Shown here one piece after another: positions 8,756 through 58,241 of a stretch of DNA of 64,000 bases (the stretch's first letter is position 1; every line of letters starts with the position of its first letter). Position numbers and translations under genes: made by a program. The stretch lies in the NCBI GenBank assembly GCA_022539475.1, contig VCMS01000120.1, positions 62,001 through 126,000 on the forward strand, read 5' to 3'. A model generated the notes under the pieces. It did no database searches, was not told the origin of the DNA, and was given only the letters and a program-made list of their open reading frames with translations. This DNA comes from Gracilaria domingensis. Taxonomy: Eukaryota; Rhodophyta; Florideophyceae; Gracilariales; Gracilariaceae.

Positions 8756-8799
8756 TGACTCTGAGCCAGGGTCCTTGTGCTCAATTACGTTCTTCCCTT

Positions 8800-9900: not shown

Positions 9901-9917
9901 GGCGACATTGGCATATC

Positions 9918-10685: not shown

Positions 10686-10689
10686 CCCG

Positions 10690-21195: not shown

Positions 21196-21211
21196 TGCAT
21201 TATGGTTTACG

Positions 21212-24200
21212 TTACGAAAGTTTGGTGATTGGATGGTAGTGTAAACGAGCTCGGGGATTGCGATAGAATCTGTTAATGTAGAATCGGTGGAACTTCCAGT
21301 GCAATGGAGGGAAAAAGGATCGTGCGGGATAGTTTCGTCGGAGGATGTGTACCGAGCCTTTGATCGAAGAGAATGGGACGAGACCGAACCATGGGGGTAC
21401 AGATGCAGTTGTTGACCGTTTTAGAGAATTGGAGGTTTGCAATGTGTGATCTTCCTCGTCATCCGTGGCCCAGCGGACGGAAATGCAGTTCAAGGATTCG
21501 TCAATGTTATCCAACGGCTCCGTTACCTCGAAGAAGCGAACAAAGGCAAATTCAGAATCGGAATTGCTTTGGTTACATCTGCTAAAGCGAACCAGGGCAA
21601 AGACTTTGCATACCCATGCGGTCGGGAAGTCACAACCGGGAGGAGGAGTTCCATTAACCAGGACGGTAGAGAATTTTGGGGACTTGGAAGGGCCGAAAGA
21701 AGTGGTTGCAAAAATACGTTCACACAAAGAGACCTCCGGCTCTCGCAGTCTAATGCATTGAAAGTGACGATCGTAGTCATCCAGCGAGGGGCAGTACCCA
21801 GAAACAATGTAAGCGGAGTTAACGACGGTGATTTTGATGTCATAGGGGTTGTCCAACGGTTGAAGAGTTTCTAAGCTTAGGGTACGGAAGGAAGAGAGGG
21901 CGTCGCGAAAGATTTGGTTGATGAACTGCAATGTAGTTTTGGAGAACAAATCTGTGAGAGCAGATGACGGGACGTTTGGATGGGACCGTAGATACTTGTC
22001 GGCCGTGATGATGTCGAAGAGGGAGAATGAACTACCATCACGAACCATGGAGGGACACCGCTGCGACAAACGACTGGCCGAGTTGGTAGACATGGAGAAG
22101 TGTTTCCTTACCGAGATGGAGTGTAAGAAATCCTGCGACTCTTGGATTGAGTCCACTGTTTCCTTATGCGCAGTTGATCTTCTGCGAGAGGTACGGCGGT
22201 AGTGGTTCTTGAAGAGGAGATGCGCGTGCTCGTACACACCTGCATCACCGAAATGGAGGCCTCCGTATCGACGGATGTCTGGAATGATGTGATCCAGGAG
22301 ATGGAATTTGAGAGTACGAAAGTTGGAGGCCTGGTATGGACCCAAAACTGAGACAGTTTGAGTCTTGAAGTTCTTGATGAGAGTCTCCAAAGAGCGTAAG
22401 CGATCATCAGTCCATTCTGGGGCAGTGTGGTAGTGAAGAACGTTATTGACGAGATCGACGTAAGAGGTGAAAATGGTGGTTATTGGGGCGGGAGATACTT
22501 CACCGCAGCAACGGTCGAAGAATGCACCGATGAAGGGGAAGACCATGTCGAGGGCGCGATAGTCCTTTGCTTCTAGCATGCCTCTGATTCCGTCAGTGGT
22601 GAAGAAGCCGTTGAGAGACTTACCCTTTTCAGATGTCGAGAAATCAATATGAAGCCCTGGAGCCGGAAACGAGCGTTCGATGTCAGCTAGGATGGAGTTA
22701 GCGTGAGTAAGAATAGATGTTCTGATGGACCGAAACGACCTGGAGGATCCATTGAAGCCCACGGAAGTGTGAAGAGAATCGGACTTCAGGTGTTCGATTG
22801 TGGCGAGTTTGATGAGTTTAGAGATGCCAAGGTGAAAGTTGTGAAGGGGCTCGAAGGAGAAGATTGAATAAGGAGTGAGCAGTGAAGAGATGTTGAGAAG
22901 AGGGTAAGATTCCAGAAAGGACTTGTATGGAGAGAGAGAGGTGGAGTGGAGAAGTTCTGCAGCTTCTTCTTTGAGGTTCCTTGCAACCCGTGGTCTATGG
23001 GAGAGGAGAGCAGAATCTGCCTCGAGAAGTAGGTCATCATGTCTTTTTCTGGTTTGCAAAGTGTGTGAGAGGGTTCGCTCTGTGAGAATAGGTTGGTAGA
23101 GGTTGAGTTTTGAACGAGGGAGGAGACACCGGTGGCAGGGTTTGCTTGGCTTTGTGCCATGAAGTACTGCGAGAATGTCCTTGGCTTCGGGGATGTCAGC
23201 GCTGTAGTTGGAGATGACTGGATGGCATTGACGAAGGACTCCTTTGGCGTCGCGGAAGGGAAAACCCTTTATACCGATATGATACAGAGGTTTGAGGGTT
23301 TCTAGGGACTCCTGGACGAGCTACATGCGCACAATGCGGGTCACGCTGGGGGTTGAGGGAGCGACTTCCAAGGAATCTGTGTCAGTGGAGGACGAGTCGG
23401 AGGTGAAGGATGTGGGTATGTATCCGACGAGTGTGTAGTTCTGCGTGATGCACTTTCTGCGGAAGGAGTCATTGAAATTGAGGAGGGTGATGTGAAGAGG
23501 ATACGACGTAACAGAAGAACTTTTGAAAGAGGTGGAAGACTTGTCTGAATATAGTTGAACGAGGCCGACGAACGAGTCTGTGCCGGTGATACTGGGATCG
23601 TGCCAGATGACGTCGGGGTCCGGAGAATGCATGATATGCCTCTTGATAGTCGGGACGACATGGCGGCCGAGTTCCGAAGCCATAGGGTGTGCGATTGCGG
23701 TAGTTCCTGTTCTTGAAGCTTGTTTGACTGGATGAAAGAAGGAGTTGCTGTGGGATGCGAGACAAAGTTGTTGTAGGAGAACCTGAACGCGGTCCCTGAG
23801 GTAGAGGGTGGCGGAGAAGTTATGGTTTTTGTCATGGATGATGGTTGAGGTGAACCCAATGGAGCTGACTGTTTCTTCGAAGATTTTGGAGTGCAGTTTC
23901 AGACATTCGGCAGCGGAAGTGATGGAGGTCTGGAAGAGGGAAGAGGGAAAGGTGGATTGCTTGAGAATGTTGATGAGCTCGTCAGCAGAACGCTTTCCGA
24001 GTTTTGTGGCGATGGAGGATATGTAGGTGACGAGGTTATGGATGTGGTCTTTCTGTGAGGGTGGAGAGGGGGAGAAGGCGTTACCTGAGCCTGTGGAAGG
24101 GGACTGGGAGGCGAGTTGGTGATGCGGGCTGAGTATCTGTGCTGCGTCGGATGAGCGTAGGGAGAGCGCAAGCTGTTCCTGGAGATAAGGGTCGTCGTCT

Positions 24201-24427
24201 GCGAGTGCTACGTTATCGGACGGGCGGTTAGAGGGGGGAAAGGAAGGGGGTTCGGTGTTGTTGAGTCTGCGGCGCTTGGTTCGGGGAGGGAAGTGGGATC
24301 CTCGATGAGGTGTTGGGGTGAGAAACGGGTTTGGGTCATTCCTGTGTCTGCATCGCTTCTGATGCTGGGCGAGAGAGGCGAGGGACTGTGTATGGAATGA
24401 GCAGCGGGGGAAACAACAGTTGTGCAT
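21212..24427 (-). pseudogene. Plavaka-type transposase, copy B, one in-frame TAG
   Basis: A 1071-codon frame, continuous except for TAG at 23321-23323 (codon 369). The N-terminal finger is C-x3-C-x12-H-x3-C (CCFPRC...QHQKRC). Catalytic D295 lies in QLYSDKSSTSFKSS, D411 in HPVISNYSADIPEAKD followed by PCHRC, and E733 in LHFGDAGVYEHAHLLFKNHY. This is the DDE layout of Plavaka/CACTA-like transposases, which excise and reinsert the element in the nucleus. The C-terminal 150 residues are basic and aromatic (FPPLHWKFHRFYINRFYRN). The TAG replaces a Gln found in the diverged copy at 13.7-15.7 kb and is shared with copy C. A possible 68-bp 5'-UTR intron (AG-GTACGT...CCTGCAG) lies just upstream. Apart from the TAG the gene looks whole. 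Confidence 0.8.
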
Positions 24428-24798
24428 GGCTGGGTGAGAGGGTATGAAAGTAGTGAGGGAAGTTGCTTGCAGAGGGAGGTCCGTGGTGATGGTGCGGCGC
24501 AGGATCTTGGAGCACCCTGCAGGGGAGAGTATAAAGTGTGTTTATTTGCCACCAACTCCATCGTGCACGTGATCGTTTACGTACCTTTCCTGCATGTTTC
24601 AGTGTGGGGAGGATTTCGAACTTTTCTGAACACAACTTTCAAAAATTTTCGCGGACGGCGCATTACGCGGCCGGCGATGATTGACGTACAGTGTGGCTGC
24701 GATTGAAGTTCTTCTTCTGTGAGCTTCAGTGGCGTTGCCTCTCAGAGTCCTGTCCTGGGATGTGAAACGTGCGAAACAGGTAAGTCGAGGCGTAAATG

Positions 24799-25220
24799 TT
24801 TGATATGGCGAATATGCGCGACTCTGACCAGTGTTTTTGCGCGGCGGCGGCTGTGTGCGAGAATGAGCGCGACAGGTTCATGAAGCTGCAGCGTGCGGAA
24901 TCTTTGGATTGGAACCGGAGTAGTTCTGGTTTTTTATGTTTGGGATGCGTACTGAATGGGTTCAATGTAAGTGAGACCTTTTGATGCTGATGGTGTTTGC
25001 GAAGTCTAACTGCGGAACGTTACGTGATTTTGCGAGACGCACGGAGAGGATTTGGAAGCAGTTTAGCGTGAATGTCTTGGGCGGGGGCCTATGGGTAAGT
25101 TTGAGAAGCTTTTTGTTCGACTTTTGATGTGAATGCTAACTGGATAATGTTGTATGCGTATGCGTAGGGCTTTTGGGACAGTTTGATGCGTGTTGTCGAG
25201 GGTATAGGTGAGGTAGGGGA
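24799..25220 (+). other. candidate small spliced gene divergent from the transposase
   Basis: The first exon reads MFDMANMRDSDQCFCAAAAV to GCVLNGFN and ends at GTAAGT. An intron with a TCTAAC branch-like motif leads to RTERIWKQF and VLGGGLW, ending at GTAAGT. A second intron with GCTAAC and a TGCGTAG acceptor leads to GFWDSLMRVVEGIGEV, ending at GTAAGT. A related exon-like block (DFRDSLIRVFEAIGEV) with its own GCTAAC/TGTGCAG intron lies at 25.7 kb, so the region arose by duplication. The same arrangement is conserved in copy C (minus strand, 45518-45097). The splicing is inferred from sequence only. Confidence 0.35.
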
Positions 25221-25514
25221 CACATGGTAAGTAGATGAGTGTTCATTTGAGAATGTTTCGAAGAGCGAAGAGTTAGCTAACGGGATATGTGACTGCGCGG
25301 CGGGGGCTGATTGCGAGAATGAGCGCGATAGGTTCATGGAGTTATAGCGTGCGGGATCTTTGGATTGGAAGTGGAATGGGGATGGGGCGGAAGGCCGTGG
25401 TTTACTTCGTTTCCTATGTGTAACGTGTTTTTTAGGTGAAGTGGATAAGGGAGAATGGTTACGATGTGGCTGGGTGGTTGGGCTTCTAGAGGAATCATGC
25501 TAATGACCCTGAAG

Positions 25515-25616
25515 TCTGACGAACAAGAGTTTGGGGTCATGGAAAGAATGATTACCTCAACGGAGGCCTTCCAGGTAATCAGTCTTTGCCATTACTCCAA
25601 ATTCTTGTTCGTCAGA
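25515..25616. repeat. 102-bp hairpin in the 5' region of copy B
   Basis: Arms of about 44 bp start with TCTGACGAACAAGA and close with TCTTGTTCGTCAGA; they are imperfect inside, with a loop of about 15 bases (CAACGGAGGCCTTCC). The same hairpin is present in copy C at 44700-44801. Confidence 0.75.
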
Positions 25617-26551
25617 GTTCGGTGTGGATGGCAAGGTACGCGTCGGGGTAAGTACGAGATGTTTTTTGTTCGAGTTCTGATAAGAATGCTAACCGGTTAC
25701 TGTTTTATGTGTATGTGCAGGATTTTCGGGACAGTTTGATTCGTGTTTTCGAGGCTATTGGTGAGGTAGGGACACATGGTAAGTAGATAAGTGTGCATTT
25801 GGGAACGTTTCGAAGATGGAAAAGTATCTAACGGAGTATTTGACTAGCTTGTGTTTGTGCATGTGCAGGTGCGTTGGATGGCAATGGATCAGTGGCGGTG
25901 CTGGAAATTGTGCAGTTGAGATGTTTTCGAGGGAGTTGGGGAGATGAAGATGGCGAAGAATGTTTAGGTAAGTGTGTTTATTTCCATGTTGGGATGGACG
26001 AAGAGACTAGGCAACAGAAAACTAACCAAGGGGATGCCTACATTGAGGGCAACGAGAGCATTTTCAGGGTATCTATTCGGTGAATTTCCATGCGTAATTG
26101 TCTTCCAAATGATACAGGGCTTCTTTGGTGATGTCAGAATGGATTTTCGGGGGTGGGAAGTAGGGTGGAGATGTGTACGATGACCGGTTTGGACCTGTTT
26201 TCATGTGGTGCTATAACTTGCATGAACCTGCAATACTGCATCAATAACATTCATTTCTGCTAGGATGGAACTTCCACCATGCTTTCGGACCGATGGCTCT
26301 TTTGGACCGATGGACCGGTAGTACTAGTGAACTAGCAGAAATGGAAGTTAGTTCTAAGATTCTAGCAACTTTCATATTTCTTAGAAATAGCTCGTAGTTT
26401 GAAAGTCAAGCCTAGTATTCAATTCAAACAATACTGCAGAATCTGGAGTTTACTCTAGTTTTTCTTCCACTTCAAACTTCCACTAATCGCAATTTAACAT
26501 ATGAAATACTAGCATTTTTTTTCTGCGAGTTTGGGACTGTAAACTAGCATC

Positions 26552-26567
26552 CCGGAAACACAGACGC
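26552..26567 (-). repeat. transposon terminus, copy B
   Basis: CCGGAAACACAGACGC, the exact reverse complement of the 43750 terminus. Sequence outside it differs from that outside the other ends, which fixes the element boundary here. Confidence 0.75.
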
Positions 26568-43748: not shown

Positions 43749-43749
43749 C

Positions 43750-43765
43750 GCGTCTGTGTTTCCGG
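43750..43765 (+). repeat. terminal inverted repeat, left end of the large element
   Basis: GCGTCTGTGTTTCCGG, identical in inverted orientation to 56965-56980 and to 26552-26567. Followed by ATGCTAG subterminal motifs. Confidence 0.75.
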
Positions 43766-44699
43766 GATGCTAGTTTACAGTCCAAAAATCGCAGAAAAAA
43801 ATGCTAGTATTTCATATGTTAAATTGCGATTAGTGGAAGTTTGAAGTGGAAGAAAAACTAGAGTAAACTACAGATTCTGCAGTATGGTTTGAATGGAATA
43901 CTAGGCTTGACTTTCAAACTACGAGCTATTTCTAAGAAATATGAAAGTTGCTAGAATCTTAGAACTAACTTCCATTTCTGCTAGTTCACTAGTACTACCG
44001 GTCCATCGGTACAAAAGAGCCATCGGTCCGAAAGCACGGTGGAAGTTCCATCCTAGCAGAAATGAATGTTATTGATGCAGTATTGCAGGTTCATGCAAGG
44101 TATAGCACCACATGGAAACAGGTCCAAACCGGTCATCGTACACATCTCCACCCTACTTCCCACCCCCGAAAATCCATTTTGACATCACCAAAGAAGCCCT
44201 GTATCATTTGGAAGACAATTACGCATCGAAACTCACCGAATAGATACACTGAAAATGCTCTCGTTGCCCTCAATGTAGACATCCCCTTGGTTAGTTTTCT
44301 GTTGCCTAGTCTCTTCGTCCATCCCAACATGGAAATAAACACACTGACCTAAACATTCTTCGCCATCTTCATCTCCCCAACTCCCTCGAAAACATCTCAA
44401 CTGCACAATTTCCAGCACAGCCACTGATCCATTGCCATCCAATGCACCTGCACATGCACAAACACAAGCTAGTCAAATACTCCGTTAGATACTTTTCCAT
44501 CTTCGAAACTTTCCCAAATGCACACTTATCTACTTACCATGTGTCCCTACCTCACCAATAGCCTCGAAAACACGAATCAAACTGTCCCGAAAATCCTGCA
44601 CATACACATAAAACAGTAACCGGTTAGCATTCTTATCAGAACTCGAACAAAAAACATCTCGTACTTACCCCGACGCGTACCTTGCCATCCACACCGAAC

Positions 44700-44801
44700 T
44701 CTGACGAACAAGAATTTGGAGTAATGGCAAAGAATGATTACCTGGAAGGCCTCCGTTGAGGTAATCATTCTTTCCATGACCCCAAACTCTTGTTCGTCAG
44801 A
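44700..44801. repeat. 102-bp hairpin in the 5' region of copy C
   Basis: The counterpart of 25515-25616. Arms open with TCTGACGAACAAGAATTTGG and close with TTGTTCGTCAGA; the loop is about 15 bases. Confidence 0.75.
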
Positions 44802-45096
44802 CTTCAGGGTCATTAGCATGATTCCTCTAGAAGCCCAACCACCCAGCCACATCGTAACCATTCTCCCTTATCCACTTCACCTAAAAAAACACGTTACACA
44901 TAGGAAACGAAGTAAACCACGGCCTTCCGCCCCATCCCCATTCCACTTCCAATCCAAAGATCCCGCACGCTATAACTCCATGAACCTATCGCGCTCATTC
45001 TCGCAATCAGCCCCCGCCGCGCAGTCACATATCCCGTTAGCTAACTCTTCGCTCTTCGAAACATTCTCAAATGAACACTCATCTACTTACCATGTG

Positions 45097-45518
45097 TCCC
45101 CTACCTCACCTATACCCTCGACAACACGCATCAAACTGTCCCAAAAGCCCTACGCATACGCATACAACATTATCCAGTTAGCATTCACATCAAAAGTCGA
45201 ACAAAAAGCTTCTCAAACTTACCCATAGGCCCCCGCCCAAGACATTCACGCTAACCTGCTTCCAAATCCTCTCCGTGCGTCTCGCAAAATCACGTAACGT
45301 TCCGCAGTTAGACTTCGCAAACACCATCAGCATCAAAAGGTCTCACTTACATTGAACCCATTCAGTACGCATCCCAAACATAAAAAACCAGAACTACTCC
45401 GGTTCCAATCCAAAGATTCCGCACGCTGCAGCTTCATGAACCTGTCGCGCTCATTCTCGCACACAGCCGCCGCCGCGCAAAAACACTGGTCAGAGTCGCG
45501 CATATTCGCCATATCAAA
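45097..45518 (-). other. candidate small spliced gene, copy C
   Basis: The same exon and splice-site pattern as at 24799-25220, opposite strand, divergent from the transposase. Its preservation in both copies mainly reflects their recent common origin, so it is weak evidence of selection. Confidence 0.3.
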
Positions 45519-45889
45519 CATTTACGCCTCGACTTACCTGTTTCGCACGTTTCACATCCCAGGACAGGACTCTGAGAGGCAACGCCACTGAAGCTCACAG
45601 AAGAAGAACTTCAATCGCAGCCACACTGTACGTCAATCATCGCCGGCCGCGTAATGCGCCGTCCGCGAAAATTTTTGAAAGTTGTGTTCAGAAAAGTTCG
45701 AAATCCTCCCCACACTGAAACATGCAGGAAAGGTACGTAAACGATCACGTGCACGGTGGAGTTGGTGGCGTATAAACACACTTTATACTCTCCCCTGCAG
45801 GGTGCTCCAAGATTCTGCGCCGCACCATCACCACCGACCTCCCTCTGCAAGCAACTTCCCTCACTACTTTCATACCCTCTCACCCAGCC

Positions 45890-48800
45890 ATGCACAACTG
45901 TTGTTTCCCCCGCTGCTCATTCCATACACAGTCCCTCGCCTCTCTCGCCCAGCATCAGAAGCGATGCAGACACAGGAATGACCCAAACCCGTTTCTCACC
46001 CCAACACCTCATCGAGGATCCCACTTCCCTCCCCGAACCAAGCGCCGCAGACTCAACAACACCGAACCCCCTTCCTTTCCCCCCTCTAACCGCCCATCCG
46101 ATAACGTAGCACTCGCAGACGACGACCCTTATCTCCAGGAACAGCTTGCGCTCTCCCTACGCTCATCCGACGCAGCACAGATACTCAGCCCGCATCACCA
46201 ACTCGCCTCCCAGTCCCCTTCCACAGGCTCAGGTAACGCCTTCTTCCCCTCTCCACCCTCACAGAAAGACCACATCCATAACCTCGTCACCTACATATCC
46301 TCCATCGCCACAAAACTCGGAAAGCGTTCTGCTGACGAGCTCATCAACATTCTCAAGCAATCCACCTTTCCCTCTTCCCTCTTCCAGACCTCCATCACTT
46401 CCGCTGCCGAATGTCTGAAACTGCACTCCAAAATCTTCGAAGAAACAGTCAGCTCCATTGGGTTCACCTCAACCATCATCCATGACAAAAACCATAACTT
46501 CTCCGCCACCCTCTACCTCAGGGACCGCGTTCAGGTTCTCCTACAACAACTTCGTCTCGCATCCCACAGCAACTCCTTCTTTCATCCAGTCAAACAAGCT
46601 TCAAGAACAGGAACTACCGCAATCGCACACCCTATGGCTTCGGAACTCGGCCGCCATGTCGTCCCGACTATCAAGAGGCATATCATGCATTCTCCGGACC
46701 CCGACGTCATCTGGCACGATCCCAGTATCACCGGCACAGACTCGTTCGTCGGACTCGTTCAACTATATTCAGACAAGTCTTCCACCTCTTTGAAAAGTTC
46801 TTCTGTTACGTCGTATCCTCTTCACATCACCCTCCTCAATTTCAATGACTCCTTCCGCAGAAAGTGCATCACGCAGAACTACACACTCGTCGGATACATA
46901 CCCACATCCTTCACCTCCGACTCGTCCTCCACTGACACAGATTCCTTGGAAGTCGCTCCCTCAACCCCCAGCGTGACCCGCATTGTGCGCATGTAGCTCG
47001 TCCAGGAGTCCCTAGAAACCCTCAAACCTCTGTATCATATCGGTATGAAGGGTTTTCCCTTCCGCGACGCCAAAGGAGTCCTTCGTCAATGCCATCCAGT
47101 CATCTCCAACTACAGCGCTGACATCCCCGAAGCCAAGGACATTCTCGCAGTACTTCATGGCACAAAGCCAAGCAAACCCTGCCACCGGTGTCTCCTCCCT
47201 CGTTCAAAACTCAACCTCTACCAATCTATTCTCACAGAGCGAACCCTCTCACATACTTTGCAAACCAGAAAAAGACATGATGACCTACTTCTCGAGGCAG
47301 ATTCTGCTCTCCTCTCCCATAGACCACGGGTTGCAAGGAACCTCAAAGAAGAAGCTGCAGAACTTCTCCACTCCACCTCTCTCTCTCCATACAAGTCCTT
47401 TCTGGAATCTTACCCTCTTCTCAACATCTCTTCACTGCTCACTCCTTATTCAATCTTCTCCTTCGAGCCCCTTCACAAATTTCACCTTGGCATCTCTAAA
47501 CTCATCAAACTCGCCACAATCGAACGCCTGAAGTCCGATTCTCTTCATACTTCCGTGGGCTTCAATGGATCCTCCAGGTCGTTTCGGTCCATCAGAACAT
47601 CTATTCTTACTCACGCCAACTCCATCCTAGCTGACATCGAACGCTCGTTTCCGGCTCCAGGGCTTCATATTGATTTCTCGACATTTGAAAAGGGTAAGTC
47701 TCTCAACGGCTTCTTCACCACTGACGGAATCAGAGGCATGCTAGAAGCAAAGGACTATCGCGCCCTCGACATGGTCTTCCCCTTCATCGGTGCATTCTCC
47801 GACCGTTGCTGCGGTGAAGTATCTCCCGCCCCAATAACCACCATTTTCACCTCTTACGTCGATCTCGTCAATAACGTTCTTCACTACCACACTGCCCCAG
47901 AATGGACTGATGATCGCTTACGCTCTTTGGAGACTCTCATCAAGAACTTCAAGACTCAAACTGTCTCAGTTTTGGGTCCATACCAGGCCTCCAACTTTCG
48001 TACTCTCAAATTCCATCTCCTGGATCACATCATTCCAGACATCCGTCGATACGGAGGCCTCCATTTCGGTGATGCAGGTGTGTACGAGCACGCGCATCTC
48101 CTCTTCAAGAACCACTACCGCCGTACCTCTCGCAGAAGATCAACTGCGCATAAGGAAACAGTGGACTCAATCCAAGAGTCGCAGGATTTCTTACACTCCA
48201 TCTCGGTAAGGAAACACTTCTCCATGTCTACCAACTCGGCCAGTCGTTTGTCGCAGCGGTGTCCCTCCATGGTTCGTGATGGTAGTTCATTCTCCCTCTT
48301 CGACATCATCACGGCCGACAAGTATCTACGGTCCCATCCAAACGTCCCCTCATCTGCTCTCACAGATTTGTTCTCCAAAACTACATTGCAGTTCATCAAC
48401 CAAATCTCTCGCGACGCCCTCTCTTCCTTTCGTACCCTAAGCTTAGAAACTCTTCAACCGTTGGACAACCCCCATTACATCAAAATCACCGTCGTTAACT
48501 CCGCTTACATTGTTTCTGGATTCTGCCCCCCGCTGGATGACTACGATCGTCACTTTCAATGCATTAGACTGCGAGAGCCGGAGGTCTCTTTGTGTGAACG
48601 TATTTTTGCAACCACTTCTTTCGGCCCTCAGGAAGGCTTCCAAGTCCCCAAAATTCTCGACCATCCTGGTTAATGGAACTCCTCCTCCCTGTTGTGACTT
48701 CCCGACCGCATGGGTATGCAAAGTCTTTGCCCTGGTTTGCTTTAGCAGATGTAACCAAAGCAATTCCGATTCTGAATTTGCCTTTGTTCGCTTCTTCGAG

Positions 48801-49115
48801 GTAACGGAGCCGTTGGATAACATGGACGAATCCTTGAACTGCATTTCCCTCCGCTGGGCCACGGATGACGAGGAAGATCACACATTGCAAACCTCCAATT
48901 CTCTAAAACGGTCAACAACTGCATCTGTATCCCCATGGTTCGGTCTCGTCCCATTCTCTTCGATCAAAGGCTCGGTACACATCCTCCGACAAAACTATCC
49001 CGCACGCCCCTTTTTCCCTCCATTGCACTGGAAGTTCCACCGATTCTACATTAACAGATTCTATCGCAATCCCCGAGCTCGTTTACACTACCATCCAATC
49101 ACCAAACTTTCGTAA
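45890..49115 (+). pseudogene. Plavaka-type transposase, copy C
   Basis: It begins MHNCCFPRCS at 45890 and is nearly identical to copy B throughout, with the finger and all three catalytic acidic residues present. The same TAG interrupts it (46994-46996). In addition a 10-base insertion (TCAGGAAGGC at about 48628-48637) shifts the frame before the last 150 residues, which continue in another frame to 49115. Both breaks would have to be bypassed for a full product, so this copy is less complete than B. A possible 5'-UTR intron lies at 45733-45800. Confidence 0.8.
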
Positions 49116-49131
49116 CGTAAACCATAATGCA

Positions 49132-49581
49132 TTAGTGACGTTCTATCCAATTCTCCTCACGTAATCCTTCTTGCACAGACCTTTCCCTCACATCCCTCTC
49201 TGCAGTTATGTCGTAGAACATACGGTCTCCCCGACTGCAGCATCCAACATAGCAATCCAGTACAGCTCCGAGCTTCTCAGAGATCTCTCCCATAAACACA
49301 TCTTCTCGGACAGCAAGGTACATTTTCCTTTTCGACGGAATCCAGTAAACCACAGTGCCCACCCGGTCATCATTTCCATGCCGCGCATCTTCAGCATTCG
49401 ATGGGCCATTTCTGAACTCTGTTGGATAACTCTGCTGCATGCGGACCCTCACGGTCTTCAGTATACTCTCAAGTGCCAGTGGTAGACATTTCGCGAACAA
49501 GTTGGAGAACAACACTTGTCTCTTACCACCTCTCTCTCGTTCAGACTCTGTCATGCGAACAACGGACGCTATCCAGGCAGT
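49132..49581 (-). pseudogene. transposon gene 2, truncated to its last 150 codons
   Basis: It matches the C-terminus of the 18643-21195 gene (AWIASVVRMTESERERGGKR, GTVVYWIPSKRK, CYVGCCSRGDRMFYDIT). Homology stops abruptly at about 49581, inside the coding sequence, where an unrelated frame begins. The junction marks a deletion or rearrangement that joined the transposon core to the cargo region. Confidence 0.75.
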
Positions 49582-50581
49582 TATGTACAGACATCGCTTG
49601 ACGAATAGAAGACACGTACTCTTTGGAGAATACATTGAAACGGGGTGGTACTCGTGCGGGGCGGCCAGGTCTGAAGCTTTCCAACAAATTCCATCTTGAC
49701 GTTGGGGACATTTTGTATAGGAAGCCATTCAACACAATCTTGCTGAAATCTGCCAAGAATTCCTTTGCCAACTCCCGTAAGTTGGCGTCGATAGTATCCG
49801 GAAGAGTATGAACCCAAGAAACGGTGTCGTTCACATCCAACGTGGGTTTCAGTTCTTCCCCCAACGTATGAAAAGCTGACTCCGGACTGTACCCAACAGA
49901 GCGGGATTCAATGATATGGAACCCAAGCGACTTCTTTTCTACAAGCAGGTATGGCAGCAACATCTGCTCACCATCACCAAAGCCTAAGGTTGAGGCAAAG
50001 AAATCCCATCCCTTACAAGTCGTTTGCACTGCATGTGCCATCCGTCTCCCGTGCGTCTCATTCGAAGCTATGTAGCCGTCGACGAACTGCACAGCTCTAT
50101 GGGTTCCCTTCCCGGTCCTTCCTCTCTTCGCCGCTGGCAGATTTCTCTCCGAAGTTATATGCTTTACGAAAGAGAGATAGAGTAACTGCTGAAAACGAGT
50201 GGGAGGCCCAATCCTGAACGTAGTTCTCTTCGTCTGCTTACTGCCTGGACCATGTCGTTTGAAAAGGTCATTCCAGAAAGCCCGTTCTATGAACGAGTTA
50301 CCGTTGTCGACATCCTTTTCAAGACTCCAGGTAAACAAATCTCTCACGCGCCGATCAGAATTCTCGTCGTCTAGATCAGTGATACGCGCTAGAGGATGCG
50401 CTAGAGGATACCGTGCCGTGGTTCTCATCGGCCAGCACACTCTGCTTAACAGTCCGAGGAGCGTCATTTCCGGTGGACGCCATGTAAGAACTGAGAATCG
50501 GAAAGGACGCGAAGTAAACGAGTATTGTGAAACGGTAGAAGTTTCGGAGATGTTTAAATGGGTGGGAAGCGTCGGAAACAA
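49541..50581 (-). CDS. unknown 346-residue frame adjoining the truncated transposon gene
   Basis: An open frame with good protein-like composition (RDLFTWSLEKDVDNGNSFIE, AVQFVDGYIASNETHGRRMA, TLGFGDGEQMLLPYLLVEKK, DTIDANLRELAKEFLADFSK). Its last dozen residues read across the 49581 junction into transposon sequence in a non-native frame, so the original C-terminus is lost. I recognise no domain. Upstream it faces the palindromic repeat at 50.75-51.38 kb, with the dioxygenase-like gene divergent on the other side. Confidence 0.45.
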   Translation of the reverse strand: MFPTLPTHLNISETSTVSQYSFTSRPFRFSVLTWRPPEMTLLGLLSRVCWPMRTTARYPLAHPLARITDLDDENSDRRVRDLFTWSLEKDVDNGNSFIERAFWNDLFKRHGPGSKQTKRTTFRIGPPTRFQQLLYLSFVKHITSERNLPAAKRGRTGKGTHRAVQFVDGYIASNETHGRRMAHAVQTTCKGWDFFASTLGFGDGEQMLLPYLLVEKKSLGFHIIESRSVGYSPESAFHTLGEELKPTLDVNDTVSWVHTLPDTIDANLRELAKEFLADFSKIVLNGFLYKMSPTSRWNLLESFRPGRPARVPPRFNVFSKEYVSSIRQAMSVHNCLDSVRCSHDRV

Positions 50582-50744
50582 TGGTGGAGAGCGCGGTTGC
50601 GACGGATTACCGAGAACTGAGCTGGTAATGAAATAGAGAGACGAGAGTGGGATCTAAACACATCAAACCGGTGGGGCACCTCAGTATATGCAGTGCATTA
50701 TATGTCTAGTATGTAAAACCAACGTAGAAAACACTGGGTTCGTA

Positions 50745-51378
50745 CATCTTTGAACATCGCCCGAGCGCCGTGTGGGAACCGCGGTTCGCCGAGTTCATAG
50801 CCGAGATCATAGCTATGATCTCGGCTATGAACTCGGCGAACCGCGGTTCCGGCACGGCGCATCTGACGAAACGCCACGTGTATACCGCCGAAAGGACCCC
50901 CCTTGATGACCCCCCTGGAGGACCCCTTGCTGGCGTTTATGTGGGCAGTGACGTCGAATAAACGGGAGAGCGATGGAGACGCGGATGACACTTCGGACAC
51001 ATTGTGTAGCAAGCGTGGAAGACGGAGGGGAAGGGCTTGAGAAGGAGAGACGATGCGGTGGGAGCGGAGCAGCGCACGGAGGGCTGCGGCCATCGACAGG
51101 GCGTCACTTATTCACTGCCCACATAAACGCCAGCAACACCACCAGGTAGTGGTGGTGTGGGTGAGAACAGGTGCTTTGGTGCGCATTGTGTAGCAGAAGT
51201 GGTCTCCAGGGGGTCCTCAGGGGGGGTCCTTTCGGCGGTATACACGTGGCGTTTCGTCAGATGCGCCGTGCCGGAACCGCGGTTCGCCCAGTTCATAGCC
51301 GAGATCATAGCTATGATCTCGGCTATGAACTCGGCGAACCGCGGTTCCCACACGGCGCTCGGGCGATGTTCAAAGATG
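50745..51378. repeat. long inverted repeat with a palindrome in each arm
   Basis: Arms 50745-50962 and 51105-51378 are reverse complements; the right arm has about 75 extra bases (a GGTGTGG/CACCACC-rich insert). Each arm contains a 76-bp palindrome (50775-50850, perfect; 51273-51348, one mismatch) built from GGAACCGCGGTTCGCCGAG and TTCATAGCCGAGATCATAG plus their complements. The 142-bp spacer, read on the minus strand from 51093, begins MAAALRALLRSHRIVSPSQA, Arg-rich and without acidic residues, like a mitochondrial presequence. The whole resembles a foldback element that captured a host gene fragment. Confidence 0.75.
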
Positions 51379-51697
51379 ATGAAAGGCGGGGACAGTGGTC
51401 AACCAGGACGGAATCAGACATTGATCCAACCATTTATAACCATCAGGAACTGTACCCACACTGCTCACGTGGGCATTGCAGCCGTTTTGAACGTGAGTGG
51501 TTGCGTCCATTGTGCTCACGCGAGAAAGGGCGGAGATTCGAACACGAGCGGTTGCAACTTCACGGGAGCAAACGTACGATTTGAAGAACACCAGGACTCG
51601 TGTATATCACACACACTGGCACCATATAATGGATATGAGGGGACTGGGAAAGGGTCAAATGAGACGCTCTCGAAAGATGAGAAAGCCTCGACGAACC

Positions 51698-53617
51698 ATG
51701 GCACCACAACTTCGGAGCGGGACCAAAACTGCTGAACCGAACGCAGCGACGGGGAACGCATCCACAGCTATGAAGTCGAAGCCCGCACCAGGCGAAGAAG
51801 TGAACTTGTTGTTGGGAGGGGCAGGAGGGAACAAAGCAGCGATTGGGAAAGCTGTTCTCGTTGAAGTGGACGCTGGTGGAGGGAAGACAACGTTCAGAAG
51901 GGAAATGCATGGACATGCTCTGCAGGGAAAACCAGGGGAAGATGTAGTTGGTATATGGCGAGCGAAGATATCTCATGAGCTTGACACTCCCTATCCCTAT
52001 CCCTTTAAGTGTACCGATAAAGATTCTGTTCCGAAGACATTGAAGGACATGAACAGGCCCGGTTTCTACGCCTGGGACCTGAACTTAATGTCTAAGGTGG
52101 GTGACGTCGTAAGCGCTGATGAAGGGGACAAGGGTGCTCCGAGTTCCAAATTCGTCGCCCCTGAGAAGCCATCGAATACTGCTCGGAAACGGGTGCGAGT
52201 GGTAGAACCTAAAACTCCATCCAGTGCCCGAAAGCGAATGCAGATGAAAGTGGCTGATGTAAAAACCCCGTCGAATGCTAAACAACCCCAAGGCGGGAAA
52301 CAAGCGCCAGTACCAAAGCTGAAAACACCATCGAACGTTCACGGTGGTGGAAAACAGATGCAAGAATTCAAGATGACCACGACCCCGGAGAGTGCTGTAT
52401 CGGCATTTCGTAAACAAACTGCTACGATTGTGCATCTCCAGAAGCAACACCGAGGCCACTTGTTGGAGCCCAAGGAATTTGAAAGTGTGCACCATGCTGT
52501 CTTTTGGCATGCAGCGTATCATGGCCATAAACTCCTGAACGCGGCAATGGGAGGCATGGAGGTCGACGAGAAGACGTTATGGGGGGATGCACTGAAGAAC
52601 GACTCTCTTGCATATGTCTATTTTGTGAAGAAGAACGTCGAGCTTCGAGACAGAGGTTTCTGTATTCTGGACGGCTTTGCATCGGATGGAGAGTTGGTGA
52701 AGCTGACAGAGAGTTTGAGCAAGCTCATTGACGGGGATGTTAGTGTGGAATTACTGGACTTCTTCCGAAGGGACTTCGAGAGGGCTCCAGACCTTAGGAT
52801 ACCAGAGAACCGAATCACATGGATACCGATCATCAACGCAGATGGTGGGAGGTACATGACTACGAGAAGAGGCATAGTGGGTGACATGGAGGCAGCCGTA
52901 GAAAGACATGTGCTTGTGAAGAAGAGAGCTTTACTGGATGCCCGACTGGGACAGATATGTGCTTTAATGGGTTTACAAGATAATAGGGTGGAAAAGGAGA
53001 GGATGTATGCGCCGAAGACGGGGGGGAGGGTGTTATGCACTGCAGTTGGATGCAAGCGGCAGCAGTTACATACGGATTTCCCGACCTTGGCGAATGAGGA
53101 TAAGCTGGAAGAAAAGAAGAACCCGGGGTACTCTATGATGGTGTCCGGAAGTGTGTCGTTTCCAATTTGGGTATGTGAAGGGTCTCATACACACTACGCA
53201 GTTACTCCCAAGGCATTTGAAGGTTTGGCACGGGGGATGTTTGTGAGGAAGTTTTTCGTTCCGTCTAAGTCTATATTTATTGGAAGAGGTGATGTGTTCC
53301 ATGCAGGCGCTTCAAATGAGGATGGAAGACTCCCCGAGATTCCCTTGTTTCGTTACCACATGTACATGGTACCTGAGAAATACAACCTCCCGGATGCGGT
53401 ACACCTTAACCAACACTTTCGACCTCAGTTCAAGGAGGATGAAAACCTGGTTAGTATGAAGGAGAAGAGGAAGAATCCAGAACCGTCGAATTTGGAGGAG
53501 GAGAATGATGAGGTGATAGTAGAGGAAGGGGAAGAACAGTATGAAGAAGATGACGAAGATGAGAATTATGAAGTGGAGGAGATTGAAAACGATCTTGAGG
53601 ATGGCGAAGAGGACTGA
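51698..53617 (+). CDS. 2-oxoglutarate/Fe(II) dioxygenase-like protein
   Basis: A 639-residue frame from ATG 51698 (ACCATGG context); an upstream in-frame ATG at 51497 lies just after the inverted repeat and is less likely. Residues about 155-220 contain four copies of a (K)TPSNA/KPSNT motif between basic runs, probably DNA- or chromatin-binding. The C-terminal half carries GFCILDGFASD, ALLDARLGQICALMGL and APKTGGR, then the beta-helix core: QLHTDF (H458, D460), GSVSFPIWVCEGSHTH, IFIGRGDVFHAGAS (H535) and PLFRYHMYM (R552). These are the HxD...H iron ligands and the Arg that binds 2-oxoglutarate. The last 40 residues are nearly all acidic. Family members hydroxylate proteins, nucleic acids or small molecules; the substrate here is unknown. 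All ligands are intact. A decayed paralogue lies at 7.5-8.8 kb. Confidence 0.7.
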   Translation: MAPQLRSGTKTAEPNAATGNASTAMKSKPAPGEEVNLLLGGAGGNKAAIGKAVLVEVDAGGGKTTFRREMHGHALQGKPGEDVVGIWRAKISHELDTPYPYPFKCTDKDSVPKTLKDMNRPGFYAWDLNLMSKVGDVVSADEGDKGAPSSKFVAPEKPSNTARKRVRVVEPKTPSSARKRMQMKVADVKTPSNAKQPQGGKQAPVPKLKTPSNVHGGGKQMQEFKMTTTPESAVSAFRKQTATIVHLQKQHRGHLLEPKEFESVHHAVFWHAAYHGHKLLNAAMGGMEVDEKTLWGDALKNDSLAYVYFVKKNVELRDRGFCILDGFASDGELVKLTESLSKLIDGDVSVELLDFFRRDFERAPDLRIPENRITWIPIINADGGRYMTTRRGIVGDMEAAVERHVLVKKRALLDARLGQICALMGLQDNRVEKERMYAPKTGGRVLCTAVGCKRQQLHTDFPTLANEDKLEEKKNPGYSMMVSGSVSFPIWVCEGSHTHYAVTPKAFEGLARGMFVRKFFVPSKSIFIGRGDVFHAGASNEDGRLPEIPLFRYHMYMVPEKYNLPDAVHLNQHFRPQFKEDENLVSMKEKRKNPEPSNLEEENDEVIVEEGEEQYEEDDEDENYEVEEIENDLEDGEED

Positions 53618-53894
53618 GTGAATATGTGATGAAACTTTGTAGTAATCTATGTGTCGAATATAGTTTCGAAGTAAATGATCTTGTGAATCGAGAGAAAGTT
53701 TAAGAATTGTGGAAGCGACGACTCTACCCAAGATTGAAGGGTAGGATAGGATACCATACCAAACACTTCAATCCTGGAGAGCGTCATGAACAAGTGGGAA
53801 CTATGTTTGTAGAGAAGGGATTCTGTTTAGTTGAAACATGTATCAGTTATGTACTTATGTTCGTATACTACTTGTCTCGCACTTGGTGAATACG

Positions 53895-55097
53895 TCAGCC
53901 AGAAGGCAGTAGATGTTGTGTCGGGGGTCTAGGGTGCTCACCAATGGCGCACAAGTATCGCTTTGCGTTGATTCTTGGTGCGTGTTTGACGACTCCGGAG
54001 CATACAAGTAGTACAATGAACAAGGTGTTTGTGAGGAGGGGCGGGATACCTCTGTACGAACCAAAGGATTCGGGGTCCAAGGACTCGGAGAGTGTGTGTG
54101 CGAAGAAAACTGGGACCACTCTGTTCAGAAAAAGTCTGATAGAAAGCAGGAAATCCTGAAGGAACAAAGCTTTCCGGAACGAGTTTAGAATACAACGGCA
54201 GTACGGATTTACCCCTCTTCTCTGGTATACCACCCGATTGGAGAGCGGAACTATGTTGTTGAACGTATGTTTTGTAGAGAAATAGATCCCAAATGTGTTG
54301 ATGAGAATGGTGCAGAAGCCGAAGAAGAAACCGCCGGGGAAGAAGGAAATACATGCAGTTTTGAGAGAATCCATGACATCGATTGGAGGAGGACGGAGCT
54401 GATAGGTGACGAAGATAGAGAGGTTGAGGACGATAAGCCCACCGATGCCCATGCCGAGGTATTTATTCCTCAGTTCCGAAACGGTGCTGGATGTGTGCGA
54501 CGGAGTCATTGGACCATATGCGAGTCTACCATACCTTGTGGCGTGAAGAGAGAATGCCAATTCAAACAGAATAATGTGAAACATAGTTTCGAGCATGCTG
54601 TACAGGATGGTGAATCCCAGTTGTGTTTGGCGGGAGGAGCGATCGTAGAGAAGAGCGTGTGTTGTGAGAGGCTTTATAATCCCATAGAGAGCTCCTATGG
54701 CTACTGAAACGAAGAGGGAGAGTGCCAAGAGAGAGGATAGCGAGAGCATGTTCAGGGGATTATGTGAATAAGACCGAGCCTCTGACATGTAGTTGGGTAG
54801 CTCTGAAAGATTCCCAATTGTGTGGAAGAAGGGAGGATGTTCAAGGATTCGGTCATGAATTGAAACTTCGTGAAGTATGTCATAAACATCACTGAGTTCA
54901 TCTAGCAGTTCGGGGGATAAAAGGGTCTGGACTCCTCGAACCGTGGCTTCCCCGGTGTCAACGTCGTACTTCAGTTGAAGGCAGTCGTCAAAGGTGATGT
55001 ATGTCCTATGGGGAAATGCGTTGAGATGGATAGGTATGAGAGCAGTTTGGTTGCGAAGCTGTACATGCGATACCTTGTGGGTGTTTTGGAAGGCCAT
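53895..55097 (-). CDS. multi-pass membrane protein of unknown function
   Basis: A 400-residue intact frame. The first 110 residues are soluble (FDDCLQLKYDVDTGEATVRG resembles a small beta domain). Hydrophobic segments lie at about 117-142, 160-183, 213-233, 248-273 and 352-370, with a weaker one at 315-335, giving five or six membrane spans. No signal peptide or known transporter motif is seen. It converges with the dioxygenase-like gene, whose stop is about 280 bp away, and diverges from the acidic protein gene. It lies inside the 43750-56980 element and may be cargo. Confidence 0.55.
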   Translation of the reverse strand: MAFQNTHKVSHVQLRNQTALIPIHLNAFPHRTYITFDDCLQLKYDVDTGEATVRGVQTLLSPELLDELSDVYDILHEVSIHDRILEHPPFFHTIGNLSELPNYMSEARSYSHNPLNMLSLSSLLALSLFVSVAIGALYGIIKPLTTHALLYDRSSRQTQLGFTILYSMLETMFHIILFELAFSLHATRYGRLAYGPMTPSHTSSTVSELRNKYLGMGIGGLIVLNLSIFVTYQLRPPPIDVMDSLKTACISFFPGGFFFGFCTILINTFGIYFSTKHTFNNIVPLSNRVVYQRRGVNPYCRCILNSFRKALFLQDFLLSIRLFLNRVVPVFFAHTLSESLDPESFGSYRGIPPLLTNTLFIVLLVCSGVVKHAPRINAKRYLCAIGEHPRPPTQHLLPSG

Positions 55098-55737
55098 TGT
55101 GAGCTCTGCTGCCTGTGAGTAGGTAGGAAAGAGGAGAAGAAATGAAGAAAGAAGGGGCGAGGAGAAGATATATTTATTGAGAACGAAACGAGCAGATATT
55201 ACCTATAAAGAGGTGTATCGAAGGAGCTATATCTATGTTTTGTTTCCTTTAAGGCTTGTAAATTTGAAGTGAAGAAGGTGTTCATAAACGAGTGGCGAAC
55301 TTAGCTTCTGTGATGGAAAAGCTATGAAGAGACGGAGTACATGAAGAGTAAAATGTAGGGCGATGAAGAGGACGGGAGAATCATGATATGATGGTAGTGG
55401 TAGGATTTCATTTCATATACTACTGGCATGAACCATGTATGAAAACGGACGCCCTTCTCGCAACGGTTGGGAGAACATGGAGAATGAAAAGCATAGAGAG
55501 TGTTCAAAAGTGAAGAATTGTGCTAGTAAGTATGAAAATAATTGCGATGCAGAGGTCGGACGGATATGAGCGGGTGCGGCGGTACTACAGTGTCATGGGA
55601 CGAAAGCGTCTACCCTTGGTACACCGTGATCGGTTTGCGAAGGAACGATCAGCGAGTTCTGTTCTTTTCGGCTTCCCTGATTTCTCTTCTTTCGATATCC
55701 CTTTTGCTCTTCTACCAGATCTTCTACCAACGCGACC
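55098..55737. other. divergent intergenic region
   Basis: Between the membrane protein (-) and the acidic protein (+). It should hold both promoters. No specific element is recognised. Confidence 0.4.
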
Positions 55738-56550
55738 ATGAGCGATGACGATTCGCGTTCGAACATTAGGTGGCCGTGGGAGTCGGACGAAGGGGTACGG
55801 TCGCACAAGAAGTTAAAGAGTGTGTTCGAGGAGGAGGAAGAAAAGGACGAGCTGGACTGGTGGGCCACTGCAGTGCTGGGGTGTGCCGGAGCGATGGGGA
55901 CGCGCATGGGAGAGGACGTGGGTCGACTGACGAAGAAGGTGACATGGTTCGTGGTAAGGGAACTGAGGGGGATGAAAGAGGAGCAGAAGAAGATGATGAA
56001 ACGCAATGAGAATCTGGAGGGGAGCTCGAAGGAGGTGAATGGGAGGAAGAAGGGCGGGGTAGGGGGTGTGGAGGGAACGCCGGTAACTCCGGCGCCGAAG
56101 ACGAAGATCGTGAACGGCGTTGGGGTAGGAGTGTGCATCGGAAGCGAGGACGAGGATGCGAGAGACTTTGTACCGGCGACGGATAGTTTTGGGGCGGATG
56201 AGGTGATGGAGGGAGAATTGGTGTGGAAGAGAGGTCTGAAGAGGAAGGTTGGCGAGAAGAGGCCGATCCAACCGAGGAGTGTGGGGGTAAAAGAGGATGA
56301 AATTCAGCCGAAGGTGGAGAACAAGAAAGGAAAAGGGGATAGTAAGAAGAGGACACGGGTTGGGTTCAGGACTGTTCCGAAGCCGGTGTGGAAAGGGAGC
56401 AGTGTTGTTGGATACGAGGAGAAGTGGAGCTGGGAGGATGTTGTGGAGGATGAGGAGGAAACGGTTGAGAATGATGATGGGAAAGAATTTCGTACGCTAT
56501 CATTCGCGGATGTGGAGGTAGAGGAAGGAGATGAAGGTGCTTTACTTTGA
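55738..56550 (+). CDS. acidic/basic low-complexity protein
   Basis: 270 residues from the ATG at 55738 (MSDDDSRSNIRWPWESDEGV). Highly charged, with an EEEEEK run, a helical segment RELRGMKEEQKKMMKRNENL, then GTPVTPAPKTK, basic KRKVGEKRP and KKGKGDSKKRTR stretches (nuclear localisation-like) and an acidic C-terminus. The order of helix, TPVTPxxKTK and basic block is shared with the protein at 1598-2527. No domain is recognised. It is the last gene before the right terminus of the element at 56980. Confidence 0.5.
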   Translation: MSDDDSRSNIRWPWESDEGVRSHKKLKSVFEEEEEKDELDWWATAVLGCAGAMGTRMGEDVGRLTKKVTWFVVRELRGMKEEQKKMMKRNENLEGSSKEVNGRKKGGVGGVEGTPVTPAPKTKIVNGVGVGVCIGSEDEDARDFVPATDSFGADEVMEGELVWKRGLKRKVGEKRPIQPRSVGVKEDEIQPKVENKKGKGDSKKRTRVGFRTVPKPVWKGSSVVGYEEKWSWEDVVEDEEETVENDDGKEFRTLSFADVEVEEGDEGALL

Positions 56551-56639
56551 TTGAGGTGATACAGTAGTTGCCGGGTTGATGGAGGTTGAAAAGCGGTGGG
56601 GGAATGGATGTGCGCAACTACCATTTCATGAATGTTGTA

Positions 56640-56964
56640 CTAGCCAGAGTTAGTTTACATTCATTATTTGTTTTTACTTGCAATCGACAAGTATGCAAGT
56701 GCCGTTGGTAGCTTCCAGATCGAGCTACCACCTAATCCGTCTGAGTATACTAGGTACAAAAATTTTCGTGTCATGGAGGTGAACTAGCAATGATGTCCGC
56801 TTTCACTCATTCTACAAATTCTGTAGTATTGCTTGAATAAATGAAAGTATGGTATCCAAAAAAATTTTTTTTTGGCTTGCACATAGCCGTACATTCAATT
56901 CTTTACACATTTTTTAACGATTCAATCCACAAAATAGCATTCTAGCCTCTTTACATAGCGTTCC
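56640..56964. repeat. subterminal region of the right end
   Basis: Contains ACTAGCC, ATACTAGG, AACTAGCAATG and GCATTCTAGCC motifs and a CTGTAGTATTGCTTGAA stretch recalling CAATACTGCAGAATC at 26.44 kb. Diverged from the left subterminal region but built of the same CTAG elements. Confidence 0.5.
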
Positions 56965-56980
56965 GGAAACACAGACGCGG
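56965..56980 (-). repeat. terminal inverted repeat, right end of the large element
   Basis: CCGGAAACACAGACGC, the exact complement of 43750-43765. One further base pair (C/G) also matches outside. Confidence 0.7.
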
Positions 56981-58204: not shown

Positions 58205-58241
58205 AAGGGTTGAGCTGTTTAACTTAAACAGCTCAACCCTT
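58205..58241. repeat. hairpin, 17-bp arms
   Basis: AAGGGTTGAGCTGTTTA pairs exactly with TAAACAGCTCAACCCTT across a 3-base loop. Confidence 0.7.

What the first reader, a model, noticed from the sequence alone, without database searches (positions are those of the whole stretch)
43750..56980. A 13-kb DNA transposon that seems to carry a dioxygenase, a membrane protein and an acidic protein as cargo
Seen: exact 16-base inverted termini (GCGTCTGTGTTTCCGG) at 43750 and 56980, both followed by CTAG-containing subterminal motifs, bounding the transposase and five further genes or frames. Known: fungal Kyakuja-Dileera-Zisupton elements, another class of DDE transposons, carry TET/JBP-type 2OG-Fe(II) dioxygenases. 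Inference: this Plavaka-type element independently carries a 2OG-Fe(II) enzyme, perhaps to modify chromatin or DNA at the element, plus unrelated cargo. No target-site duplication is evident and one internal junction (49581) shows rearrangement.
Basis: partly seen in the sequence, partly recalled or inferred. Interest (0 to 1): 0.85.

Follow-up and report, generated by a model that had tools for sequence, protein, structure and literature searches.

The report
Damaged giant transposon with epigenetic genes
This is a shortened, damaged copy of a roughly 20,000-base jumping gene in what looks like a red alga; fuller copies show a fixed set of six genes, among them one predicted to methylate DNA fused to one predicted to methylate proteins, and the whole element has a strand imbalance of G and C that flips near the middle and may record how it is copied.

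Summary
The element is real: 43751-56977 (13,227 bp), perfect 15-bp inverted ends and a CG/CG 2-bp target duplication. Of 15 same-contig end pairs formed, 8 have matching 2-bp flanks (2 expected from mismatched pairings, P about 3e-4).

It is not a transposon with unrelated cargo, and the host is not a fungus: phycobilisome genes point to a red alga. The window copy is a deletion derivative of a family of roughly 20-23 kb Plavaka elements; it lost 4.5, 0.28 and 1.86 kb.

Fuller copies together show six genes in fixed order: Plavaka transposase; an unknown protein; an N4/N6 DNA methyltransferase fused to a SET domain; a protein with ParB-like and 2OG-Fe(II)-type motifs; a membrane protein; a mildly acidic protein. 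A second subfamily keeps order and orientation, with dN/dS of 0.09-0.24, so the genes belong to the element. The junction at 49579/49580 is the deletion that removed the methyltransferase and SET domains.

Silent-site GC skew runs from about -0.74 to +0.80 between the ends whatever the gene strand, without matching AT skew; subfamily 2 agrees, and a degraded third element has the same signs.

Giant red-algal EnSpm elements with accessory genes are already reported. This is a new variant.

The parts
43751..56977 (+). whole element, 13,227 bp, deletion derivative of a family of about 20-23 kb
   Evidence: 15-bp perfect inverted ends; alignment to seven fetched copies; GC skew jumps at both ends
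43749..43750 (.). left copy of 2-bp target duplication CG
   Evidence: 8 of 15 same-contig end pairs formed have identical 2-bp flanks
56978..56979 (.). right copy of 2-bp target duplication CG
43751..43765 (+). left terminal inverted repeat, followed by CTAG-rich subterminal region
56963..56977 (-). right terminal inverted repeat
45776..49112 (+). Plavaka transposase gene, broken here (an in-frame stop and a frameshift); open over 1110 aa in copy C12
   Evidence: PF18759 in both frames here and 6.1e-24 in C12; tblastn
49135..49584 (-). last 150 residues of gene 2 (unknown; open over 779 aa in C233, 491 + 461 aa in the sister copy)
   Evidence: 93% identity to the sister copy's gene 2
49579..49580 (.). 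junction of a 4,547-bp deletion that joined the tail of gene 2 to the N-terminal part of the MTase-SET gene
49580..50653 (-). N-terminal remnant of the MTase-SET gene (1118 aa in C12); DNA methylase and SET domains are lost here; also carries a 284-bp deletion
   Evidence: tblastn; Pfam on the C12 protein
50745..51378 (.). central divergent intergenic region with two near-perfect 96-bp palindromes within 170-bp inverted arms, close to where GC skew changes sign
51497..53617 (+). remnant of the ParB-like/2OG gene (1326 aa in C140); a 1,857-bp deletion at about 52437 removed the ParB-like part, leaving the N-terminus fused in frame to the 2OG-motif region
53898..55202 (-). membrane protein gene, open here, four hydrophobic segments
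55681..56550 (+). mildly acidic protein gene, open here; 270 aa from the Met at 55738
17782..26566 (-). sister copy of the same subfamily, truncated inside the MTase-SET gene
7725..15419 (-). remnants of a third, more divergent element of the same kind (transposase and ParB/2OG pieces)
   Evidence: tblastn at 30-49% identity

Best explanation
The finding is an internally deleted, no longer autonomous copy of a six-gene giant Plavaka DNA transposon of a red alga. SHOWN by sequence: the family ends in 15-bp inverted repeats; matching 2-bp flanks are over-represented; fuller copies are roughly 20-23 kb; the six genes keep order and orientation, and carry a mark of purifying selection, in two subfamilies. 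INFERRED: the Plavaka transposase cuts and pastes the element; copy number rises when the gap left after excision is repaired from the sister copy, and interrupted repair leaves internally deleted copies such as this one. INFERRED, less sure (about 0.4): the accessory genes are a self-marking kit. The methyltransferase domain methylates adenine or cytosine amino groups in element DNA, the fused SET domain methylates histones or another protein, and the ParB-like/2OG protein binds element DNA and oxidises methylated bases or protein, so that the element keeps itself transcribable or prepares its ends.
For: TSD: 8 of 15 pairs formed; mismatched pairings agree in 28 of 210, so 2 expected, P about 3e-4 (1e-6 if flanks were random). 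Fuller copies of 20.0-23.1 kb and three deletions here. Pfam in the C12 protein: N6_N4_Mtase 1.4e-14 and SET 2.6e-6, both over curated cut-offs, again in an open subfamily-2 frame (3.6e-14 and 1e-4). Best solved-structure matches of that frame include DpnA and CcrM, adenine-specific enzymes (1.2e-5 and 3.6e-5). Same gene order and orientation in subfamily 2. dN/dS between subfamilies: transposase 0.085, gene 2 0.11-0.13, MTase-SET 0.12-0.13, ParB/2OG 0.16-0.17, membrane 0.14-0.17, acidic 0.24. Deletion junctions share 0, 5 and 2 bp, as in end joining (my reading).
Against: No enzyme activity is shown. No fetched copy has all six genes open. The 2OG part matches no library and rests on HxD, a distal H and an R (HxD and H in 4 of 4 long rows aligned, R in 3 of 4); both structure predictions failed (mean pLDDT 34 and 38). 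The ParB-like part rests on a DG-x-HR pattern alone. Seven of 15 end pairs lack a matching 2-bp flank. The ends are neither TGT..ACA nor CATCA..TGATG, reported for fungal PlavakaA and B. Silent differences between subfamilies are near saturation (pS 0.61-0.70), so dN/dS values are rough. The reverse role (the methyltransferase silences the element or rivals) is not excluded.
Confidence: 0.72

Rival explanations
1. The extra genes are passengers, captured by chance and carried along without use to the element.
For: Most have no known function; many copies, including this one, have lost or broken parts of them.
Against: Same six genes, order and orientation in a second subfamily with dN/dS 0.09-0.24; traces of the transposase and ParB/2OG genes in a third.
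Confidence: 0.05
2. The element is an integrated virus-like or Polinton-like element, not a classical DNA transposon.
For: About 20 kb, inverted ends, many genes, a membrane protein, strand-skewed composition.
Against: Plavaka transposase, 2-bp TSD signal, no Pfam hit to polymerase, capsid or packaging families among the element ORFs submitted, no relatives in IMG/VR for three queries from two genes (close relatives only).
Confidence: 0.06
3. Two unrelated elements were joined at 49579/49580, and the two termini do not belong to one mobile unit.
Against: Fuller copies carry the same sequences on both sides of the junction with about 4.5 kb of further element sequence between; skew runs continuously from one end to the other.
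Confidence: 0.03
4. The methyltransferase-SET protein serves repression: it limits the element's own copy number or silences rival elements, as the bdelloid N4CMT enzyme marks transposons for silencing.
For: In bdelloids an N6_N4 methyltransferase deposits 4mC on transposons and is proposed to work with SETDB1 (PMC8885841, abstract and passages).
Against: A selfish element gains little from repressing all its copies; the window sequence does not decide.
Confidence: 0.25

Closest known systems
Giant EnSpm (recalled as Plavaka) elements of red algae, Petroll et al. 2025, Current Biology (Bostrychia moritziana); seen only as cited in PMC12477816 (passages); the paper is not held
   Same: Giant EnSpm-type element with several accessory genes in a red alga; [quoted passage not shown]
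   Different: Not comparable gene by gene, since the paper could not be read; the MTase-SET fusion, the 2OG motif protein and the skew gradient may or may not be described there.
Sola1-1_Ec32 of Ectocarpus (PMC12477816, passages)
   Same: 21.5-kb transposon with an accessory protein holding an N4C/N6A methyltransferase domain and a ParB-like domain.
   Different: There both domains are in one 1104-aa protein and the element is Sola-1; here the methyltransferase is fused to SET and the ParB-like motif is in a separate protein with a 2OG-type motif.
TET+ Plavaka, KDZ, EnSpm and other fungal transposons (PMC12730594, parts 1-4 of 7 and find passages)
   Same: DNA transposons, some Plavaka, carrying a dioxygenase that may alter epigenetic marks.
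   Different: The 2OG part here is not detectably TET/JBP, the termini differ, the host looks algal, and the MTase-SET protein is additional.
Bdelloid rotifer N4CMT (PMC8885841, abstract and passages)
   Same: N6_N4_Mtase domain used in a eukaryote, linked to histone-methylation biology.
   Different: N4CMT has SPPY and a chromodomain and is a host gene; here DPPY, a fused SET domain, and the gene belongs to the transposon.
Plavaka giant repeats of Amoebidium (PMC11244446, three passages)
   Same: Plavaka transposase beside clusters of intron-poor genes, up to 50 kb.
   Different: Many of those genes encode tyrosine recombinases; no MTase-SET or 2OG set is described in the passages seen.

Membership tests
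Plavaka DNA transposons | Plavaka transposase domain (PF18759) | tested here: met
   6.1e-24, 85.3 bits against cut-off 26.3 in copy C12; both frames in the window over the cut-off, one barely (26.6 and 38 bits)
Plavaka DNA transposons | short target duplication of 2 or 3 bp | tested here: met
   2 bp in 8 of 15 same-contig end pairs formed (P about 3e-4); 7 pairs without
Plavaka DNA transposons | termini TGT..ACA (PlavakaA) or CATCA..TGATG (PlavakaB) | tested here: not met
   CGTCTG..CAGACG; these signatures define the two fungal subgroups (PMC12730594), so it is filed by transposase only and in neither subgroup
Plavaka DNA transposons | C(2)C and H(3-4)H motifs between the catalytic acids | not tested
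   not aligned to known transposases here
TET/JBP-carrying transposons | recognisable TET/JBP dioxygenase domain | tested here: inconclusive
   HxD, distal H, R motif only; no usable Pfam, PDB, PHROGs or NCBIfam match; AlphaFold2 models useless
ParB-methyltransferase transposon proteins (Sola1-1_Ec32 type) | ParB-like and N4/N6 methyltransferase domains in one protein | tested here: not met
   methyltransferase is fused to SET; the ParB-like motif lies in the 2OG-motif protein and is itself unconfirmed by profile search
Giant red-algal EnSpm/Plavaka elements | same gene set and termini as the published elements | not testable with these tools
   paper not held
Red-algal host | phycobilisome linkers on nuclear contigs, and ApcE | tested here: met
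   14 PF00427 matches on 9 contigs, 4 of them on plastid-like C680; of 14 named controls only Synechococcus rang; top PDB match of the ApcE frame is a 5y6p chain, and a 5y6p LRC2 chain matches nearly the whole C8 linker, though the top-scoring row there is the multi-repeat CpcN chain 8imn (that 5Y6P is from the red alga Griffithsia is recalled); that the other contigs are nuclear is inferred

The most novel reading that the evidence does not exclude
The end-to-end GC-skew gradient is a fossil record of how giant cut-and-paste transposons multiply: each round of gap repair copies the element inward from both ends, so the first-made strand is the plus strand near the left end and the minus strand near the right end, and biased synthesis or damage on that strand over many rounds turns the 5'-ended strand C-rich at each end and neutral in the middle. 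The element would also carry its own writers (DNA methyltransferase-SET) and a possible eraser (2OG) of epigenetic marks. Alternatively, the central palindromes are an origin from which an excised form replicates.
Probability: 0.25. Interest if true: 0.82.

Novelty: new variant of a known kind. Interest (0 to 1): 0.6.

Why it matters
If the methyltransferase-SET and 2OG proteins are active, a selfish element carries enzymes that write marks on DNA and protein, and perhaps erase them, in a host in which the standard cytosine methylase family was not found (introns could hide one). The silent-site skew gradient would give a sequence-only test of how DNA transposons are copied, and could mark element borders when inverted ends are lost. 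It also shows that a 13-kb 'transposon with cargo' can be a wreck whose most telling genes are missing.

Tried and rejected
Fungal origin: rejected after PF00427 hits; the tektin search was uninformative, with one control ringing below the cut-off. TET/JBP identity of the 2OG part: not supported by phmmer, hmmsearch, hmmscan, PHROGs or NCBIfam; two AlphaFold2 runs failed, so no fold search was run. ParB assignment by profile: no match; kept as a motif only. Viral relatives: none for three queries from two genes. CpG-directed decay as a sign of host 5mC: C>T changes at CG 20 over 406 sites, CA 25 over 588, CC 27 over 440, CT 29 over 602 (6 copies of one 4.5-kb piece), so no CpG excess. Simple C>T deamination on one strand as cause of the skew: disfavoured, because AT skew at silent sites is nearly flat. 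Transcription as cause: disfavoured, because genes on either strand fit one gradient. The MT-A70 search cannot be read, as no control rang. The first TSD table misread the right flank of seven pairs; corrected. The first P for the TSD (1e-6) assumed random flanks; one search gives 3e-4 with the observed flank composition.
Full report
THE OBSERVATION. The two 16-base termini are there, and a third exact copy lies at 26552-26567. With one mismatch allowed in a 15-base core the assembly (77.9 Mb, 680 contigs) has 93 places, 73 of them exact; the same pattern read backwards has 10. Left-end and right-end sequences each returned 40 scored copies, the scoring limit, out of 100 and 43 candidates. The repeat proper is CGTCTGTGTTTCCGG; at both ends of the window element the next two bases are CG. 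I formed 15 pairs of ends on one contig facing each other; 8 have the same two bases outside both ends (CG, AA, TA, AT, TA, TA, AA, AT). Mismatched pairings of the same flanks agree in 28 of 210, so 2 are expected and P is about 3e-4. The 7 that fail are C140, C12, C233, C293, C61, C469 and C127; some may be wrong pairs or rearranged copies.

A SHORTENED COPY. Seven other copies were fetched and aligned. Six are 20.0-23.1 kb between the ends, one (C202) is 13.6 kb; some hold runs of N and insertions, so the lengths are approximate. Against C12 the window copy lacks 4,547 bp at 49579/49580, 284 bp at about 50388 and 1,857 bp at about 52437; none of the three junction strings occurs in the other copies or loci fetched by then. 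The transposase here has an in-frame stop and a frameshift, while C12 has one frame of 1110 aa.

GENE SET. From left to right: transposase (+); gene 2 (-); a 1118-aa gene (-); a 1326-aa gene (+); the membrane protein (-); the acidic protein (+). No fetched copy has all six open: C12 has the transposase and the 1118-aa gene, C140 the 1326-aa gene and the membrane protein. The 1118-aa protein has N6_N4_Mtase at 1.4e-14 and SET at 2.6e-6, both over Pfam's curated cut-offs; an open frame of subfamily 2 (C157) has both too, SET only just. Its motif is DPPY, and the best solved-structure matches of the C157 frame include DpnA and CcrM, both adenine-specific; PMC8885841 warns that this domain has repeatedly evolved 6mA or 4mC specificity, so the target base is open. 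The 1326-aa protein has a DG-x-HR stretch like ParB and, near its C-terminus, QLHTDF ... VFHAGA ... FRYHMYM (L for the R in C140 itself), like a 2OG-Fe(II) oxygenase; no profile search supports either. These are leads by motif, and the resemblances are recalled.

CONSERVED, NOT CARGO. A second subfamily (C109, a 25.5-kb stretch that starts inside the transposase, left end not seen, about 9 kb between the two divergent genes) has the same genes in the same order and orientation, at 38-78% identity by aligned piece. Nei-Gojobori dN/dS against subfamily 1 is 0.085 for the transposase and 0.11-0.24 for the others, with silent sites near saturation and stop codons left out. The genome tables hold 137 matches to the acidic protein, 99 to the membrane protein, 67 to the 2OG protein and 88 to the MTase-SET part; these count pieces, from capped candidate lists. 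Remnants of a third, more distant element lie in the window at 7.7-15.4 kb.

HOST. Phycobilisome linkers: 14 matches on 9 contigs, 4 of them on one plastid-like contig (C680) with ApcE; among 14 controls only Synechococcus rang. The top PDB match for ApcE is a 5y6p chain, recalled as a red alga; for the C8 linker the longest match is a 5y6p LRC2 chain, while the top score is the multi-repeat CpcN chain 8imn. A search for C5 DNA methylases (PF00145) found nothing in this genome while 10 of 14 controls rang; introns could hide one.

A COMPOSITION GRADIENT. In 1-kb bins GC skew is -0.36 to -0.45 from 44001 to 47000, passes zero at 50-51 kb and reaches +0.38 at the right end; the 17 bins from 26001 to 43000 lie between -0.06 and +0.14, and the three bins from 57001 to 60000 between -0.07 and -0.02. 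C12, C233, C140 and C109 show the same trend. At fourfold-degenerate sites, written on one strand, skew runs -0.74, -0.46, -0.25, -0.01, -0.24, -0.02, +0.27, +0.41, +0.39, +0.70 across ten genes or gene halves taken from several copies, on either coding strand; by position it runs from -0.74 to +0.80 with Spearman 0.41 over 1225 G/C sites, against 0.06 (P 0.03) over 1245 A/T sites. C109 runs from -0.51 and -0.54 to +0.51. The degraded third element shows -0.24, +0.25 and +0.36. The zero crossing lies near the central palindromes, found at two places in 6 of 8 subfamily-1 copies, at one in C25 and C202, and in neither C109 nor the C178 stretch. Five other ORFs of the window range from -0.30 to +0.03 at such sites, so the middle values mean little; the end values do.

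HOW IT MAY WORK. Transposition by the Plavaka transposase with 2-bp duplication follows from the family and the ends. Gap repair of excision sites would explain both internal deletions and the gradient: synthesis enters from both ends, so the strand made first is plus on the left and minus on the right, with decreasing certainty towards the middle. The lack of AT skew argues against plain deamination and for a bias that exchanges G and C on one strand, for instance dCMP insertion by a Rev1-like enzyme; this last step is a guess. In the right-hand 4.5 kb of six copies recent substitutions run the other way (G>A 80, C>T 21; per site about twofold, Fisher P 0.006, counts not independent), so the skew is being eroded in inserted copies and must arise elsewhere in the life cycle or earlier.

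KNOWN KINDS. [quoted passage not shown] 2025 and Iyer et al. 2011, neither read here. PMC12730594 (parts 1-4 of 7 and passages) describes TET/JBP enzymes in fungal Plavaka and other transposons. Two papers in the library hold both 'Plavaka' and 'methyltransferase'; neither describes, in the parts read, such a gene within a Plavaka element. I therefore call this a new variant of a known kind.

Noticed in passing
window 43751-56977; also C12, C233, C140, C109 and window 17782-26566: GC skew jumps at the element ends seen and runs from strongly negative to strongly positive across the element, at silent sites too, whatever the gene strand and without matching AT skew.
   Followed up: yes
window 50745-51378: Two near-perfect 96-bp palindromes within 170-bp inverted arms between the divergent MTase-SET and ParB/2OG genes, close to the skew zero crossing; present at one or two places in all 8 subfamily-1 copies compared.
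   Followed up: partly
window 7725-15419: Remnants of a third, more divergent element of the same kind (transposase 36-46%, ParB/2OG 30-49% identity).
   Followed up: partly
window 17782-26566: Truncated sister copy of the same subfamily, 98.7% identical over its left 5.8 kb.
   Followed up: partly
window 42448-43107 and about 57539-61061: Transposase frames close to both ends of the element: Plant_tran at the left by Pfam; the right-hand frames look alike by eye only, so the area may be a nest of transposons.
   Followed up: no
G000:C12 and G000:C233 right flanks, window 7726-8222: Two copies share about 500 bp of right flank, which in C12 is 98% identical to the third-type element in this window, yet their left flanks differ.
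   Followed up: no
right-hand 4.5 kb of six copies (window about 52439-56977): Recent substitutions show G>A about twice as often per site as C>T on the plus strand, opposite to what would build the skew.
   Followed up: partly
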